7,115 bases of DNA, taken from the NCBI GenBank assembly GCA_000961805.1, contig LADV01000047.1, positions 1-7,115 on the forward strand. Reading direction: 5' to 3'. Under the pieces are notes generated by a model. The model did not search any database and had not been told where the DNA came from. It saw only the letters and a program-made list of their open reading frames with translations. Shown piece by piece: positions 1 to 7,115 of the stretch. Source of the DNA: Peptococcaceae bacterium BRH_c23. Its GTDB lineage: Bacteria > Bacillota_B > Desulfitobacteriia > Desulfitobacteriales > Desulfitobacteriaceae. Each line of letters starts with the position of its first letter. Within the stretch, counting starts at the first letter, position 1. The translations under genes and the position numbers were made by a program.

Positions 1-1996
<1,996 letters not shown>

Positions 1997-2023: not shown

Positions 2024-2914
2024 ATGGAATATAAGAAGATGTTAAGCAGAATCAAAAGTTTATACTTGGAAAATGCTAATATAATTAAATATTTAAAGGA
2101 TCTTGATAGGAGCAACACTAATTTGATTGAAGACATAATGATAAGTTATGATTTTCAGGCAGGGACGTATTACCAAGAATACAAAAAAGATCCATCATTA
2201 AAAGACAAATATTGCTCATATCTAGCAAATGTTATCAATAATTTTGGTCATTATAAAACTTTATTGGAAGTAGGGGTTGGAGAAGGAACCACATTAGGGC
2301 CATTGCTTCAATGTTTAAATAACAAGCCTGATAAAGCCTATGGATTTGATCTTTCTTGGTCCAGAATAAAATATGCTAATAAATTTCTCGAAGAACTAGG
2401 AATTAGAAATGTTGAATTATTTACAGGAAACTTATTTGCTACTCCACTAAAGGATAATTCGATTGATATAGTTTACACTTCCCATTCGATTGAACCTAAC
2501 GGAGGAAAAGAAAAGGAGGCATTAATTGAGTTATATCGCATAACTAATAAGTATTTAGTTATGCTGGAACCTTCCTATGAATTTGCTTCTATCCAGGCTA
2601 AAGAAAGAATGTTAAGTCACGGGTATGTGACAAAACTATTTTCCACGGCAGTAGAACTTGGTTTCAATGTTATCGAACATAGATTATTTGAAATATCGTC
2701 CAATCCGTTAAATCCGACAGGGTTAACTATTATTAAAAAAGAGTTTAATTCAGAGTCCTTAAATCCTCTATGTTGTCCTTTGACAAAGACAGATCTTATC
2801 CATAGGAATAACGCTTACTTTTCGGAGGAAAGCCTTTTAGCCTATCCGATAATCGATGGCATACCATGTTTGATGGCGGAAAGTGCTATTGTTGCTACCA
2901 AGTTTATAGAATAA
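2024..2914 (+). CDS. Class I SAM-dependent methyltransferase with YcaR/Trm112-like C-terminal tail
   Basis: A 296-aa predicted cytosolic methyltransferase (Methyltransf_11-like) of unknown substrate. Motif I, TLLEVGVGEGT (79-89), binds SAM; GFDLS (107-111) carries the acidic residue expected to hold the ribose; GNLFATPLKDNSIDIVYTSH (135-154) is the next conserved stretch. The last 50 residues look like a YcaR/Trm112-type module: LCCPLTKTDL (249-258), then AYPIIDGIPCLM (273-284), the usual YPxxDGIPxLL ending. Canonical zinc cysteines are mostly missing, leaving Cys250, Cys251 and Cys282. The ATG at 2024 has AAAGGCGG at 2008-2015, 8 nt upstream, and starts 27 bp after pseC, so it is probably in the same operon. 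Codon use is much more AT-rich than pseC: by hand count bases 2041-2100 are 22% G+C, against 55% for 1021-1080 in pseC. That is compatible with separate acquisition. A role in O- or N-methylating the nonulosonic acid or its nucleotide precursor is inferred from position only. Confidence 0.8.
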   Translation: MEYKKMLSRIKSLYLENANIIKYLKDLDRSNTNLIEDIMISYDFQAGTYYQEYKKDPSLKDKYCSYLANVINNFGHYKTLLEVGVGEGTTLGPLLQCLNNKPDKAYGFDLSWSRIKYANKFLEELGIRNVELFTGNLFATPLKDNSIDIVYTSHSIEPNGGKEKEALIELYRITNKYLVMLEPSYEFASIQAKERMLSHGYVTKLFSTAVELGFNVIEHRLFEISSNPLNPTGLTIIKKEFNSESLNPLCCPLTKTDLIHRNNAYFSEESLLAYPIIDGIPCLMAESAIVATKFIE

Positions 2915-3022: not shown

Positions 3023-3646
3023 ATGAAAAAATACAAAACTGAGCAGGAAAGATTTTGGGCTGGTCAATTTGGTGACGAGTATATTAAGAGAAACGACAAC
3101 GAAGCAATAATCGCCAGTAATATTGCCATGTTTTCTAAAATACTGGATGGCATTAAAAATGTTGAGTCAGTGATCGAGTTTGGAGCTAATATCGGCTTAA
3201 ATTTGATAGCCGTAAAAAGTCTTCTTCCTAATACTGAAATCTCTGCTATTGAAATTAATCAAAAGGCAGTCTTAGAGTTGCAGCAACTAAGTGAGAAAAT
3301 AACGATCTATCATAAATCAATACTCGATTTCATACCTGAATATAAACGGGATTTTGTATTGATTAAAGGTGTGTTAATTCATTTAGACCCAAACTGTCTT
3401 CAAGATGTATACGATAAACTTTATCAAACAAGCAATCGTTATATCTGTATTGCAGAATATTATAATCCAGTTCCTGTAGAAATTTCGTATCGAGGACATG
3501 AGGGGAAACTTTTTAAAAGGGATTATGCTGGGGAAATGCTCGAAAAATTCAAGGATTTAAGTTTAATAAAATACGGGTTTGCCTATCATAGAGATCCTTC
3601 ATTTCCTCAAGATGATCTAACTTGGTTTCTATTTGAGAAAAAGTGA
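3023..3646 (+). CDS. Pseudaminic acid biosynthesis-associated methylase
   Basis: A 207-aa class I SAM-dependent methyltransferase that matches, as I recall the family, the 'pseudaminic acid biosynthesis-associated methylase' group (TIGR03587-type), found within Pse clusters. The opening KTEQERFWAGQFGDEYIKRN (5-24) is a family hallmark. Motif I is VIEFGANIGLN (50-60), followed by the acidic SAM-binding segment AIEIN (75-79), GVLIHLDP (116-123), EYYNPVPVE (145-153), RGHEGKLFKRD (157-167) and the ending FPQDDLTWFLFEKK. Length and end points agree with the family. It is separated from the preceding methyltransferase by 108 bp and from the next gene by 64 bp, with no terminator in either gap. Its exact acceptor has not been shown to my knowledge; a methylated nonulosonic acid or precursor is the usual guess. 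Family membership is strong, function is inferred. Confidence 0.88.
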   Translation: MKKYKTEQERFWAGQFGDEYIKRNDNEAIIASNIAMFSKILDGIKNVESVIEFGANIGLNLIAVKSLLPNTEISAIEINQKAVLELQQLSEKITIYHKSILDFIPEYKRDFVLIKGVLIHLDPNCLQDVYDKLYQTSNRYICIAEYYNPVPVEISYRGHEGKLFKRDYAGEMLEKFKDLSLIKYGFAYHRDPSFPQDDLTWFLFEKK

Positions 3647-3710: not shown

Positions 3711-4690
3711 ATGAGTTCTAAGATGAAGGTTGGAATTATCGTCCAGGCTCGGATGACGTCAACACGGTTACCAGGAAAAGTGCTTAGGCCTGTGCTGGGT
3801 AAGCCACTTTTAGAATATCAGATAGAACGGCTTCAGCGGGTTCGTCGCGCGGATGAACTTATTATCGCAACAACGACCAAGGACACGGATCAGCCGATTG
3901 TCGATTTAGCTGAACGGTTGGGAATTAAGGTCTTTCGAGGATCAGAAGAGGATGTACTATCACGCTATTTCTATGCGGCTCAGGAAAATGATTTAGATGT
4001 CGTTGTTCGTATCACTTCAGATTGCCCACTCATTGATCCGGTGGTGATTGACCGCGTTATTAGTGCATTTCTAGATAAAACGGTCAACAGTGACTATGTT
4101 TCGAATTGCTTGACCAGAACGTTTCCCAGGGGGATGGAAACCGAGGTCTTCCCGTTCGGTCTCCTAGAAACGGTCCAGAAGAGGATGTACTATCACGGTA
4201 TTTCTATGCGGCTCAGGAAAATGATTTAGATGTCGTTGTTCGTATCACTTCAGATTGCCCACTCATTGATCCGGTGGTGATTGACCGCGTTATTAGTGCA
4301 TTTCTAGATAAAACGGTCAACAGTGACTATGTTTCGAATTGCTTGACCAGAACGTTTCCCAGGGGGATGGAAACCGAGGTCTTCCCGTTCGGTCTCCTAG
4401 AAACGGTATATCGGGAAGCGATTGAGAAGCCATGCCGTGAACACGTCACCCCGTATATTTATGAAGATTGCCAGAGATTTAGCCTATTGAACGTTGCCTT
4501 TCAGCGTGATGAAAGCCAACAACGGTGGACGGTGGACACTCCAGAGGATTTTGAACTGATAGAGCGAATTATTGCAACACTCTATCCGATCAATCCCTTA
4601 TTCGAATTGGAAGATGTCTTGGCTCTAATGAGCGCTAATCCAAACTGGTTAGAGATCAATTCTCACATCGAACAGAAGAAGGTACGCTAA
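3711..4690 (+). pseudogene. SpsF-type cytidylyltransferase (probable CMP-pseudaminate synthetase), frameshifted by a tandem duplication
   Basis: Member of the CTP_transf_3 / spore coat polysaccharide SpsF family, which in Pse clusters is the likely enzyme for activating the nonulosonic acid with CTP. The N-terminal half is convincing: VGIIVQARMTSTRLPGKVL (7-25) is the nucleotide-binding loop, followed by FRGSEEDVLSRYFYAA (75-90) and RITSDCPLIDP (100-110). After Val155 a second copy of an internal 232-bp segment begins out of frame, adding 17 unrelated residues to a TAG at 4227-4229, for a 172-aa product. The rest of the protein, including the conserved RWTVDTPEDFELI, is encoded in another frame running to the TAA ending at 4690. 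Deleting one 233-bp unit gives a continuous 248-aa protein, a normal family length. As written, the gene lacks its C-terminal catalytic and dimer region in the translated product. It could be a true null, a reversible duplication or an assembly error. The pathway would need another CMP-sugar synthetase if this copy is dead. Confidence 0.85.
3943..4407 (+). repeat. 233-bp-period tandem direct duplication inside the SpsF-type gene
   Basis: Copy 1 spans 3943-4174 and copy 2 spans 4176-4407, with the single base C4175 between them. I aligned them by eye: the 232 positions agree except C3965 versus G4198, which is synonymous (CGC/CGG, Arg) in the gene's own frame. The period of 233 is not a multiple of three, so the duplication frameshifts the gene. 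Both boundaries are sharp: before copy 1 the sequence reads GGAT, before copy 2 it reads GGTC; after copy 1 comes CCAG, after copy 2 comes ATAT. No inverted repeats, target-site duplication or transposase are present, so this is not an insertion sequence. Confidence 0.95.
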
Positions 4691-4718: not shown

Positions 4719-5828
4719 ATGAAATTGTTAATACTTATTCGTGCAGATGCTTCACAATCGATTGGTAGCGGCCATATCATGCGCTGTCTGACGTTCGCAG
4801 AACGACTATTAGTACGGGGTGGAGAAGTAGTTTTCGTATGCAGGGATCTCCCTGGCAACCTGTCTGAATATATTAGAAGTCAGGGTTTTGAGGTGCATCT
4901 TCTTCCCTTGGATGAAGCCTGTGACTTAGCCTTGAGAAGACCAGAGCAAGTATGGTCGAAAACCAGGTCAGAAGCAGATGCAGAGCAGACGATGGGAGTT
5001 CTAAAGAAGTATGGGAGAAGGATTGACTGGTTAATCGTCGATCATTATGGTATTGATCATCATTGGCAATCGCTTTTGAGGGGGGGAGTAGGCCATACCC
5101 TGGTGATTGATGATTTGGCCAATCGGCGTCATGACTGTGATGTCCTATTGGATCAGAATTACTATCACAATGCGGCGGATCGTTATCACGGATTGGTTCC
5201 TAAGGACTGCTCTTTATTTCTTGGGCCCCAATACCTTTTATTAAGAAACGAATTTTACAAAGCTCGGGAAGACATGAAAATCAGGACGGGCGAGGTTTAC
5301 AACATCTTGGTGTTTTATGGGGGAGCGGACGCGACGAATGAGACTGAAAAGTGTCTAACCGGATTAATGGATTATCTAGGCTCAACGATAGAAATTCATG
5401 TGGTAACCGGTCAGTCTAATCCAAACAAAGATAGAATTAAGGACATTTGCACTTCAAGGCGGAACCTATATTATCATTGTCAAGTTTCAAATATCGCTGA
5501 ACTTATGAACAATGCAGACCTAGCCTTTGGAGCGGGGGGCGCTACCACTTGGGAGAGATGTTTTCTGGGTCTACCTTCCGTCGTGACGGTAACAGCGGAA
5601 AACCAAATGGAAACAACTCAGGCAGTGTCTGAACTGGGCGCAATCTGGAATCTTGGCTGGTACGAGAAGGTCAATGTCAACGCGTTAGTTAAAGTTGCAG
5701 AGAGATTTTTAATGGAACCCAATAAATTAGAAGGCATGCAAAAGAAGGCTCTTGATTTAGTGGGAGTTAGAGGTTCCTCAGGCATAGAGCAGTTGGTCGA
5801 GGCCATATCTCAGAGAAGAGTGAACTAA
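4719..5828 (+). CDS. pseG: PseG, UDP-2,4-diacetamido-2,4,6-trideoxy-beta-L-altropyranose hydrolase
   Basis: Cleaves UDP from the fully acylated UDP-altrose derivative to release the free sugar that PseI condenses with phosphoenolpyruvate. The fold is a two-domain glycosyltransferase-like (GT-B, MurG-related) hydrolase; 369 aa fits PseG. N-terminal domain: RADASQSIGSGHIMRC (8-23), with His19 at the position of the catalytic histidine described for Campylobacter PseG, then VDHYGID (107-113), DDLANRRHDCD (131-141) and LLDQNY (143-148). C-terminal nucleotide-binding domain: VFYGGAD (198-204), GAGGATTWER (271-280) and TVTAENQ (290-296), which contact the UDP moiety in relatives. It starts 28 bp after the SpsF-type gene. 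The ribosome binding site is weak (AAAGAGC at 4710-4716, very close to the ATG), so expression may depend on translation arriving from upstream; the premature stop in the preceding gene could therefore lower it. Assignment is firm. Confidence 0.93.
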   Translation: MKLLILIRADASQSIGSGHIMRCLTFAERLLVRGGEVVFVCRDLPGNLSEYIRSQGFEVHLLPLDEACDLALRRPEQVWSKTRSEADAEQTMGVLKKYGRRIDWLIVDHYGIDHHWQSLLRGGVGHTLVIDDLANRRHDCDVLLDQNYYHNAADRYHGLVPKDCSLFLGPQYLLLRNEFYKAREDMKIRTGEVYNILVFYGGADATNETEKCLTGLMDYLGSTIEIHVVTGQSNPNKDRIKDICTSRRNLYYHCQVSNIAELMNNADLAFGAGGATTWERCFLGLPSVVTVTAENQMETTQAVSELGAIWNLGWYEKVNVNALVKVAERFLMEPNKLEGMQKKALDLVGVRGSSGIEQLVEAISQRRVN

Positions 5829-5888: not shown

Positions 5889-6440
5889 ATGCTCAAACTG
5901 GTTGAAATTGAAGAATCAGATCTAGAAACACTGATGCACTGGCGAATGCTACCTGAGGTAACAAACTATATGTTCACCGAACCTCAGTTAACTATGGAAA
6001 TGCAAAACAAATGGTTTGATGCCATTAGTCATGATCCAACCTGTAGATACTGGATCGTTAAACTTGAAAATACGAAGATCGGGAGCGTCTACCTAACAAC
6101 TATCGATTTTCAAAACAGTCGGTGTTCGTGGGGATACTATATTGATCCCTCAATAAGAGGTCGTGGTTATGGAAAACTTTTAGAGTACAATATCTTTGAT
6201 TTTGTTTTCAATGAATTGGGATTAAATAAGCTAACGAGCGAGGTTCTGGCCTTTAACGAAAGAGTCGTTAAACTCAAAGCAAAGTGCGGCTCCCAAATTG
6301 AAGGAGTATTGAGAGAGCATATAAAAAAAGGAAACACATATCACGATGTTGTGGTCATGGGGATTTTAAGAGATGAGTGGCTGGAGCGCAGAACTAAGAT
6401 CGATTACAATAAGATTCACATAGAATGCAGTAGTAACTGA
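5889..6440 (+). CDS. pseH: PseH, UDP-4-amino-4,6-dideoxy-N-acetyl-beta-L-altrosamine N-acetyltransferase
   Basis: GNAT-family acetyltransferase (183 aa) that uses acetyl-CoA to acetylate the 4-amino group made by PseC, giving the diacetamido sugar that PseG hydrolyses. The opening LVEIEESDLETLMHWRMLPE (4-23) is typical of PseH/RimJ-like sugar acetyltransferases, with the WR..PEV.NYM stretch next. The central WGYYIDPSIRGRGYGKLL (81-98) contains the acetyl-CoA pyrophosphate-binding loop RGRGYG (90-95). The C-terminal region has the usual LNKLTSEVLAFN and GSQIEGVLREHI segments. The start is fixed by the strong AAGGAGGT. It is followed after 22 bp by a formyltransferase gene that may act on the same amine. 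A generic RimJ-like acetyltransferase is the alternative; position in the cluster makes PseH much more likely. Confidence 0.9.
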   Translation: MLKLVEIEESDLETLMHWRMLPEVTNYMFTEPQLTMEMQNKWFDAISHDPTCRYWIVKLENTKIGSVYLTTIDFQNSRCSWGYYIDPSIRGRGYGKLLEYNIFDFVFNELGLNKLTSEVLAFNERVVKLKAKCGSQIEGVLREHIKKGNTYHDVVVMGILRDEWLERRTKIDYNKIHIECSSN

Positions 6441-6462: not shown

Positions 6463-7115
6463 ATGCCTTATGTCATAGCTGCAAGCCGACCTGGATATGA
6501 GCAGATTACTCATCAGATAGCTCAGCTCACGGGTGACGAATGTCATTTGATCGATAAGCAAGAGAACTTAAATTTGAACGTGTTAAGAGAACTTAATCCG
6601 ACTTACGTGTTTCTTCCACATTGGTCTTATATAGTTCCTAAAGACGTGTATGAAGCCTATGAATGCATCATATTTCATATGACAGATTTGCCATTTGGTA
6701 GAGGGGGAAGCCCACTGCAAAACTTGATATCGAGGGGGATCTATGAGACTAAAGTTTCGGCTCTTCGATGTAGTGAAGGCATAGATACCGGACCAATCTA
6801 TGTCAAGCGAAATCTTTCCTTATACGGATCTGCGGAGGAAATATATCTCAGAGCAGCCAAAATTATTAAAGAAATGATCTTTTTTATTATAGAAAATTCA
6901 CCGCTTCCTAGAGGACAAGAAGGTGAAGTCGTTCATTTTAAGAGACGCCATCCAGAAGAAAGTAATATTGACGAGCTCGAAAGCTTAGAGAAAGTCTGTG
7001 ATTATATACGAATGCTTGATGCAGAAGGATATCCCTACGCATTCTTTGAGACAAAGCACCTGCGAATGGAATTTCGAAGAGCATCCTTGAAACAAGATTG
7101 TATTCACGCGGATGT
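6463..7115 (+). CDS. pseJ: PseJ-like sugar N-formyltransferase, 3'-truncated
   Basis: The frame starts at an ATG nine bases after AAGTGGG (6447-6453) and stays open to the right edge, giving 217 visible residues. It resembles the formyltransferase family that includes methionyl-tRNA formyltransferase and the Pse-cluster enzyme PseJ, which transfers a formyl group from N10-formyltetrahydrofolate to the amino sugar. Visible signatures: FLPHWSYIVP (50-59), FHMTDLPFGRGGSPLQNLI (71-89), EGIDTGPIYVK (105-115), PRGQEGEVVHFKRR (149-162) and IRMLDAEGYPYAFF (182-195), the last two belonging to the C-terminal domain. His72 and Asp108 align with the catalytic His and Asp of the family, but the usual Asn two residues before His is Ile70. 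It begins 22 bp after pseH, so it is in the same operon. Family call is strong; PseJ rather than a formyltransferase for another amino sugar is inferred from context. Confidence 0.85.
   Translation, partial: MPYVIAASRPGYEQITHQIAQLTGDECHLIDKQENLNLNVLRELNPTYVFLPHWSYIVPKDVYEAYECIIFHMTDLPFGRGGSPLQNLISRGIYETKVSALRCSEGIDTGPIYVKRNLSLYGSAEEIYLRAAKIIKEMIFFIIENSPLPRGQEGEVVHFKRRHPEESNIDELESLEKVCDYIRMLDAEGYPYAFFETKHLRMEFRRASLKQDCIHAD

What the first reader, a model, noticed from the sequence alone, without database searches (positions are those of the whole stretch)
3711..4690. Out-of-frame 233-bp tandem duplication splits the cytidylyltransferase gene of a Pse cluster
Two 232-bp copies (3943-4174, 4176-4407) sit head to tail in the SpsF-type gene. 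The period is 77 codons plus two bases, so translation leaves the true frame at residue 155 and stops at 4227-4229. The conserved C-terminal RWTVDTPED segment is lost. Removing one unit gives an intact 248-aa protein, so the ancestral gene was whole. All neighbouring genes are intact, which makes a lesion in this one step stand out: without CMP activation the sugar cannot be transferred.
Basis: seen in the sequence. Interest (0 to 1): 0.7.

Follow-up and report, generated by a model that had tools for sequence, protein, structure and literature searches.

The report
Doubled gene stretch, probably assembly error
A sugar-activation gene on a short bacterial DNA contig carries a doubled stretch that breaks its reading frame, but the small differences between the two copies look more like two strains' sequences laid end to end by the assembler than like a gene broken in a living cell.

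Summary
The repeat is really in the contig: 3943-4174 and 4176-4407, 231 of 232 bases identical, with one extra base (C, 4175) between. As read, the SpsF-type cytidylyltransferase gene leaves its frame after residue 155 and stops at 4227-4229. The window is a complete 7115-bp contig with no genome held, Desulfosporosinus-like. Relatives with the same gene order carry an intact gene; so does P0002, 97% identical to the N-terminal piece.

The copies differ at 3965/4198 (C/G): copy 2 has the base of all four relatives aligned, copy 1 the changed one. The junction base matches neither flank. Both odd bases fall on third codon positions that change no residue. Two strain variants in overlapping contigs laid end to end would give this, a known assembly error. 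A single-cell duplication would need an unexplained extra base, and a substitution before an unstable repeat collapsed.

I favour a false duplication (0.57) over a real, recent spontaneous one (0.36). If real, it resembles known duplication-inactivated glycan genes. Nothing found supports an evolved switch. Raw reads would decide. Interest is low.

The parts
3711..4229 (+). N-terminal part of the SpsF-type cytidylyltransferase gene as read in the contig; 155 true residues, then out of frame to TAG 4227-4229
   Evidence: ORF list and frame scan; CTP_transf_3 93.8 bits
3943..4174 (+). Copy 1 of the repeat (derived base C at 3965)
4175..4175 (+). Single junction base C, equal to neither flank; third codon position in the N frame
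4176..4407 (+). Copy 2 of the repeat (G at 4198, as in 4 of 4 relatives aligned)
4176..4690 (+). C-terminal part of the gene in its own frame, holding RWTVDTPED; open frame 4106-4690
   Evidence: ORF list; CTP_transf_3 46.0 bits for 4178-4687; matches intact relatives
1..800 (+). PseB (cut by the contig start; open frame from base 3)
   Evidence: TIGR03589 436.5 bits, cut-off 407.75
797..1996 (+). PseC
   Evidence: TIGR03588 542.2 bits, cut-off 423.5
2024..2914 (+). Methyltransferase-like gene
   Evidence: PF13649 38.2 bits, cut-off 27
3023..3646 (+). Pse-associated methylase
   Evidence: TIGR03587 292.4 bits, cut-off 112.05
4719..5828 (+). PseG
   Evidence: TIGR03590 315.6 bits, cut-off 153.55
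5889..6440 (+). PseH
   Evidence: TIGR03585 130.7 bits, cut-off 93.1
6463..7115 (+). Formyltransferase-like gene (cut by the contig end)
   Evidence: PF21553 80.6 bits, PF00551 31.6 bits

Best explanation
False tandem duplication made in assembly. Two overlapping contig ends from two closely related strain haplotypes of one Desulfosporosinus-like population, each running through the same stretch of one intact pseF-type gene, were placed head to tail instead of being merged. Haplotype A supplied the left part up to 4175 (C at 3965 and C at 4175). Haplotype B supplied the part from 4176 on (G at 4198 and A at 4408). In the living cells the gene would be whole. Shown: the two differences, their codon positions, the ancestral state of one, and the intact relatives. 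Inferred: the two strains and the misjoin.
For: The copies differ at 3965/4198, and the junction base 4175 differs from its counterpart 4408, so two haplotypes differing at 2 sites explain every odd base. Both are third codon positions and leave Arg and Val unchanged. At 4198 copy 2 has G like 4 of 4 aligned relatives, so copy 1 is the derived one; its changed base is about 210 nt from the junction, which speaks against error-prone copying at the junction. The breakpoints share one base of homology. The duplicated form was listed only as the window's own protein (1 member, 1 contig) in a search that scored 7999 candidates and listed 120; an intact 248-aa protein, P0002, matches the N-terminal piece at 97%. 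The parts of the gene evolve like the intact neighbours (dN/dS 0.13-0.37 against 0.10-0.32, three relatives), with no sign of decay. The window is a complete short contig (P0001, longest contig 7115) with no genome held. False duplications of this form (overlapping haplotype contigs placed next to each other) are described in PMC2864568 (passages).
Against: Assembler and read type are unknown, and that the contig is metagenomic is itself inferred. PMC2864568 treats vertebrate diploid genomes; its transfer to strain mixtures is my inference. Third codon positions at both sites would occur by chance about 1 time in 9.
Confidence: 0.57

Rival explanations
1. A real, recent, spontaneous tandem duplication in one lineage broke the gene. 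A template switch with almost no homology copied 232 bp twice, adding one untemplated base; copy 1 later gained a silent substitution. CMP activation of the sugar is lost unless a second cytidylyltransferase stands in.
For: The contig reads through without N. Spontaneous duplications with random sites and unique flanking sequences in the capsule locus are reported for Streptococcus pneumoniae, and loss of capsule by such duplications is called reversible (PMC3784515 passage; PMC4243769 passage; PMC4022640 passages). Lack of decay would fit a very recent event.
Against: Needs an untemplated base and also a substitution between the copies. Tandem repeats are unstable (PMC8378479 passages on 101-bp repeats in E. 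coli; no rate was read there). With a collapse rate of 1e-5 per generation (recalled order of magnitude) and 1e-10 to 1e-9 substitutions per site, the chance that a substitution comes first is 0.5-4%; slower collapse weakens this (at 1e-7, 32-82%). No 20-mer direct repeat at 100-400 nt spacing in 53 of 53 fetched loci, several of which cover the same gene.
Confidence: 0.36
2. A reversible on/off switch: out-of-frame duplication and collapse in this gene toggles the surface or flagellar glycan, as with pneumococcal capsule duplications.
For: Period not a multiple of three, gene of a surface-glycan pathway, and a known mechanism of the same sort. [quoted passage not shown]
Against: Breakpoint homology of one base only. 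No repeated 14-mers in 4 of 4 relatives' genes, and no tandem array in the gene in three relatives' loci. The copies are not identical. Nothing seen here shows recurrence.
Confidence: 0.04
3. A real duplication whose second copy came from another strain by recombination (merodiploid formation), so the copies differ because they have different parents.
For: Explains the C/G difference without waiting for mutation. Transformation-made merodiploids are known in S. pneumoniae (PMC3784515 passages).
Against: Needs two strains and a rare event, and leaves the junction base needing its own explanation. Competence genes were not looked for; no genome is held.
Confidence: 0.03

Closest known systems
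False segmental duplication by overlapping haplotype contigs ('duplicated overlapping contigs', PMC2864568; passages read)
   Same: Two adjacent near-identical copies in one place, differing by few single-base variants, each attached to single-copy flank on its own side.
   Different: Described for diploid vertebrate assemblies analysed with mate pairs; here a strain mixture is inferred and the join has no N.
Spontaneous tandem duplications in pneumococcal capsule genes (type 3 locus, cap8E, tts; Waite 2001 and 2003, seen only as reference titles and as cited in PMC4022640, PMC3784515 and PMC4243769; the gene name cap3A for the 2001 case is recalled)
   Same: Duplication inside a glycan gene, with unique flanks.
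   Different: Here the copies are not identical, one base lies between them, and reversibility is unknown. The host is known only from a contig.
SpsF / CTP_transf_3 cytidylyltransferase (PF02348) in Pse clusters of Desulfosporosinus-like genomes
   Same: Each piece matches intact 244-248-aa relatives; same gene order with the Pse methylase before and PseG after. Use of a B. subtilis sps-type gene for the PseF step, and a methyltransferase gene directly upstream of pseF, are also described in Clostridium (PMC13317340, passages).
   Different: In this contig the frame is split by the repeat.

Membership tests
CTP_transf_3 cytidylyltransferase (SpsF type) | Match to PF02348 above gathering score | tested here: met
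   N piece 93.8 bits, C piece 46.0 bits, cut-off 22.6; pieces scanned apart
PseF equivalog TIGR03584 | Score at or above the curated cut-off (205.7 bits) | tested here: not met
   N piece 30.6 bits; an intact relative's protein (L054:8449-9186) also only 30.5 bits, so the gene is an SpsF-type stand-in, not TIGR03584 PseF
Pse (pseudaminic acid) biosynthesis cluster | PseB, PseC, PseG, PseH present above NCBIfam cut-offs | tested here: met
   All four pass, plus the Pse methylase TIGR03587; PseB is cut by the contig start
Pse (pseudaminic acid) biosynthesis cluster | PseI synthase present | tested here: inconclusive
   Not among the 9 proteins scanned; the contig ends inside the next gene, so it may lie beyond the end
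False duplication by overlapping haplotype contigs | Copies adjacent, near-identical, differing only by variants that two haplotypes could carry | tested here: met
   231 of 232 identical; 3965/4198 and 4175/4408 both silent third-position differences
False duplication by overlapping haplotype contigs | Read pairs or depth fit one copy better than two | not testable with these tools
   No reads held
Duplication-based phase variation (pneumococcal capsule type) | Frame-shifting duplication inside a surface-glycan gene | tested here: met
   Period 233, stop at 4227-4229
Duplication-based phase variation (pneumococcal capsule type) | Exact copies directly abutting (recalled, not read in a paper) | tested here: not met
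   One mismatch and one extra base
Duplication-based phase variation (pneumococcal capsule type) | Reversion to the single-copy form at measurable frequency | not testable with these tools
   No culture or reads

The most novel reading that the evidence does not exclude
An environmental Desulfosporosinus-like population keeps a reversible off state of its nonulosonate glycan through an out-of-frame 233-bp duplication in the CMP-activation gene, while a neighbouring SpsF-type paralogue covers part of the function.
Probability: 0.03. Interest if true: 0.5.

Novelty: not a real feature. Interest (0 to 1): 0.12.

Why it matters
If the duplication were real and reversible it would extend duplication-based switching of glycan genes to environmental anaerobes. 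If it is false, as I think more likely, it is a worked example of how strain variation can mimic gene inactivation in an assembly, and of two signs that give it away: copy differences that sit at silent codon positions, and the ancestral base in the second copy rather than the first.

Tried and rejected
Error-prone template switch as the source of the copy difference: set aside, because the derived base is in copy 1, about 210 nt from the junction, while copy 2 next to the junction has the relatives' base.

Long-standing pseudogene: set aside. The part downstream of the stop shows the same range of constraint as the neighbours (C-flank dN/dS 0.21-0.37 against three relatives; the highest value of all parts, 0.369 against G412, is in this part) and keeps RWTVDTPED.

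Translation rescue: among positions 4101-4560 the C-terminal frame has starts at TTG 4106, GTG 4274 and 4277, TTG 4343, ATG 4367, TTG 4487 and GTG 4532. A product from 4106 or later would lack the N-terminal stretch 3711-3942 (GIIVQARMTSTRLPGKVL, which I take, from recall, to be the nucleotide-binding part). One search listed no protein of the window itself among its 120 rows. I consider rescue unlikely; it was not tested further.

Unitig boundary at k = 23 (copy 2 begins 22 nt before the first variant): noticed, but any odd k would have looked meaningful, so it is not used as evidence.

Searches without a hit: plasmid records with the whole window, no match; a 41-nt pattern across the junction in viral contigs, 0 matches. 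Literature searches gave no collapse rate in their listings, so the rates are recalled orders of magnitude. In PMC11868660 the words duplication, tandem and cap3A do not occur in the main text. Papers of which I saw passages: PMC4022640, PMC4235727, PMC8378479, PMC2864568, PMC3784515, PMC13317340, PMC4243769, PMC11868660. All others appeared in search listings only.

Full report
What was checked. The window holds two 232-nt copies at 3943-4174 and 4176-4407, identical at 231 of 232 positions, with one base (C, 4175) between them. Apart from this pair the longest exact direct repeat is 12 nt, and ten mononucleotide shuffles give 11-14 nt. The gene's frame from 3711 leaves the true frame after residue 155 and stops with TAG at 4227-4229; the conserved C-terminal part is open in another frame to 4690.

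Where it comes from. No genome is held. The N-terminal frame is listed as a protein whose only contig is 7115 bp, so the window is a complete short contig; that it is metagenomic is inferred. The best relatives are Desulfosporosinus-like. G405's contig has the same length (65,749) as the contig of P0008, named Desulfosporosinus nitroreducens, and G156's (4,926,837) that of P0024, whose name is cut off at 'Desulfosporosinus acidiph'.

The cluster. PseB (cut), PseC, PseG, PseH and the Pse methylase pass their NCBIfam cut-offs. The split gene matches CTP_transf_3 in both pieces but scores far below the PseF equivalog cut-off, as does an intact relative, so it is an SpsF-type gene in the PseF place. 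A Clostridium study likewise found PseC, PseF and PseG by homology to B. subtilis sps genes and a methyltransferase directly upstream of pseF (PMC13317340, passages). In G405, G412 and G422 (83-84% DNA identity over pseG) the same order PseB-PseC-methyltransferase(s)-SpsF-PseG is kept with an intact gene. In the genus of G156, 6 of 29 genomes have matches at E <= 1e-40 (8 matches); in a phylum sample, 27 of 398 genomes do (28 matches). The open frames of these matches are 243-284 aa. In three of the 36 rows (some genes are in both calls) a TAG was counted inside the match: L009, not followed up, and L039 and L040, whose genes are open for 245 aa without a stop. A scan of 53 fetched loci (L001-L053, several covering the same gene) found no 20-mer direct repeats spaced 100-400 nt. 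Tandem Repeats Finder found no array in the gene in L054-L056.

The overlooked detail. Aligning the left stretch (flank plus copy 1) and the right stretch (copy 2 plus flank) separately with four relatives shows G in all four at the position where the copies differ. Copy 2 is thus ancestral and copy 1 derived. The junction base C equals neither the base before copy 1 (T) nor the one after copy 2 (A at 4408). Both differences are third codon positions that leave Arg and Val unchanged. Two haplotypes differing at two silent sites 210 nt apart account for everything. A one-lineage duplication needs an untemplated base plus a substitution, and the breakpoints offer only one base of homology.

Weighing. 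[quoted passage not shown] coli, with 101-bp repeats as the example (PMC8378479, passages). If a 232-bp repeat collapses at around 1e-5 per generation (recalled, not measured here), the chance that one of 464 bases changes first is 0.5-4% for substitution rates of 1e-10 to 1e-9; at a collapse rate of 1e-7 it is 32-82%. The argument is therefore suggestive, not decisive. dN/dS against three relatives is 0.13-0.37 for the four parts of the split gene and 0.10-0.32 for its neighbours, so there is no clear decay: either the event is very young or there is no lesion. False duplications made when overlapping haplotype contigs are placed side by side are documented for vertebrate assemblies (PMC2864568, passages). 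Against this stands the clean join without N and the unknown assembler.

If it is real. Duplications in the pneumococcal capsule locus with random sites and unique flanks are known and are described as reversible (PMC3784515; PMC4243769; PMC4022640; passages only, and the original Waite papers were seen only as reference titles). It would then be a new member of a known kind. Loss of CMP activation would also not be certain: in G405, G399 and G422 a second SpsF-type protein (245 aa; 52-54% identical to the N piece, 42-44% to the C piece) lies directly upstream of pseB, beyond the window's start. Its specificity is unknown, and NCBIfam gives only sub-cut-off matches for the two copies scanned.

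Verdict. The repeat is present as described. It is most likely a false duplication from two strain haplotypes (0.57); next, a real, recent, ordinary duplication (0.36). Interest is low either way.

Noticed in passing
L054:4326-5063, L056:4286-5023, L058:10572-11309: A second SpsF-type cytidylyltransferase (245 aa, 52-54% identical to the N piece) sits directly upstream of pseB in three relatives, with PseC-like and PseH-like genes further upstream; perhaps a second nonulosonate pathway.
   Followed up: partly
window 2024-2914: Methyltransferase gene with counterparts in two of three close relatives (L055, L056) but none found in L054. Its C-terminus looks by eye like a short Cys-containing Trm112-like tail (recalled resemblance); no Pfam hit there at E 0.001.
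   Followed up: no
L055:1-444: About 49 copies of a 9-bp tandem repeat (GGAGCAACA, 82% matches) at the edge of a G412 contig.
   Followed up: no
window 6463-7113; L055:14777-15457: Formyltransferase-like gene next to pseH here, but about 4 kb beyond pseG in G412; no pseH match was found in L055 at the cut-off used.
   Followed up: no
L009 (G135:C1:174429-174884): One TAG counted inside the cytidylyltransferase match; it may lie upstream of the true start.
   Followed up: no
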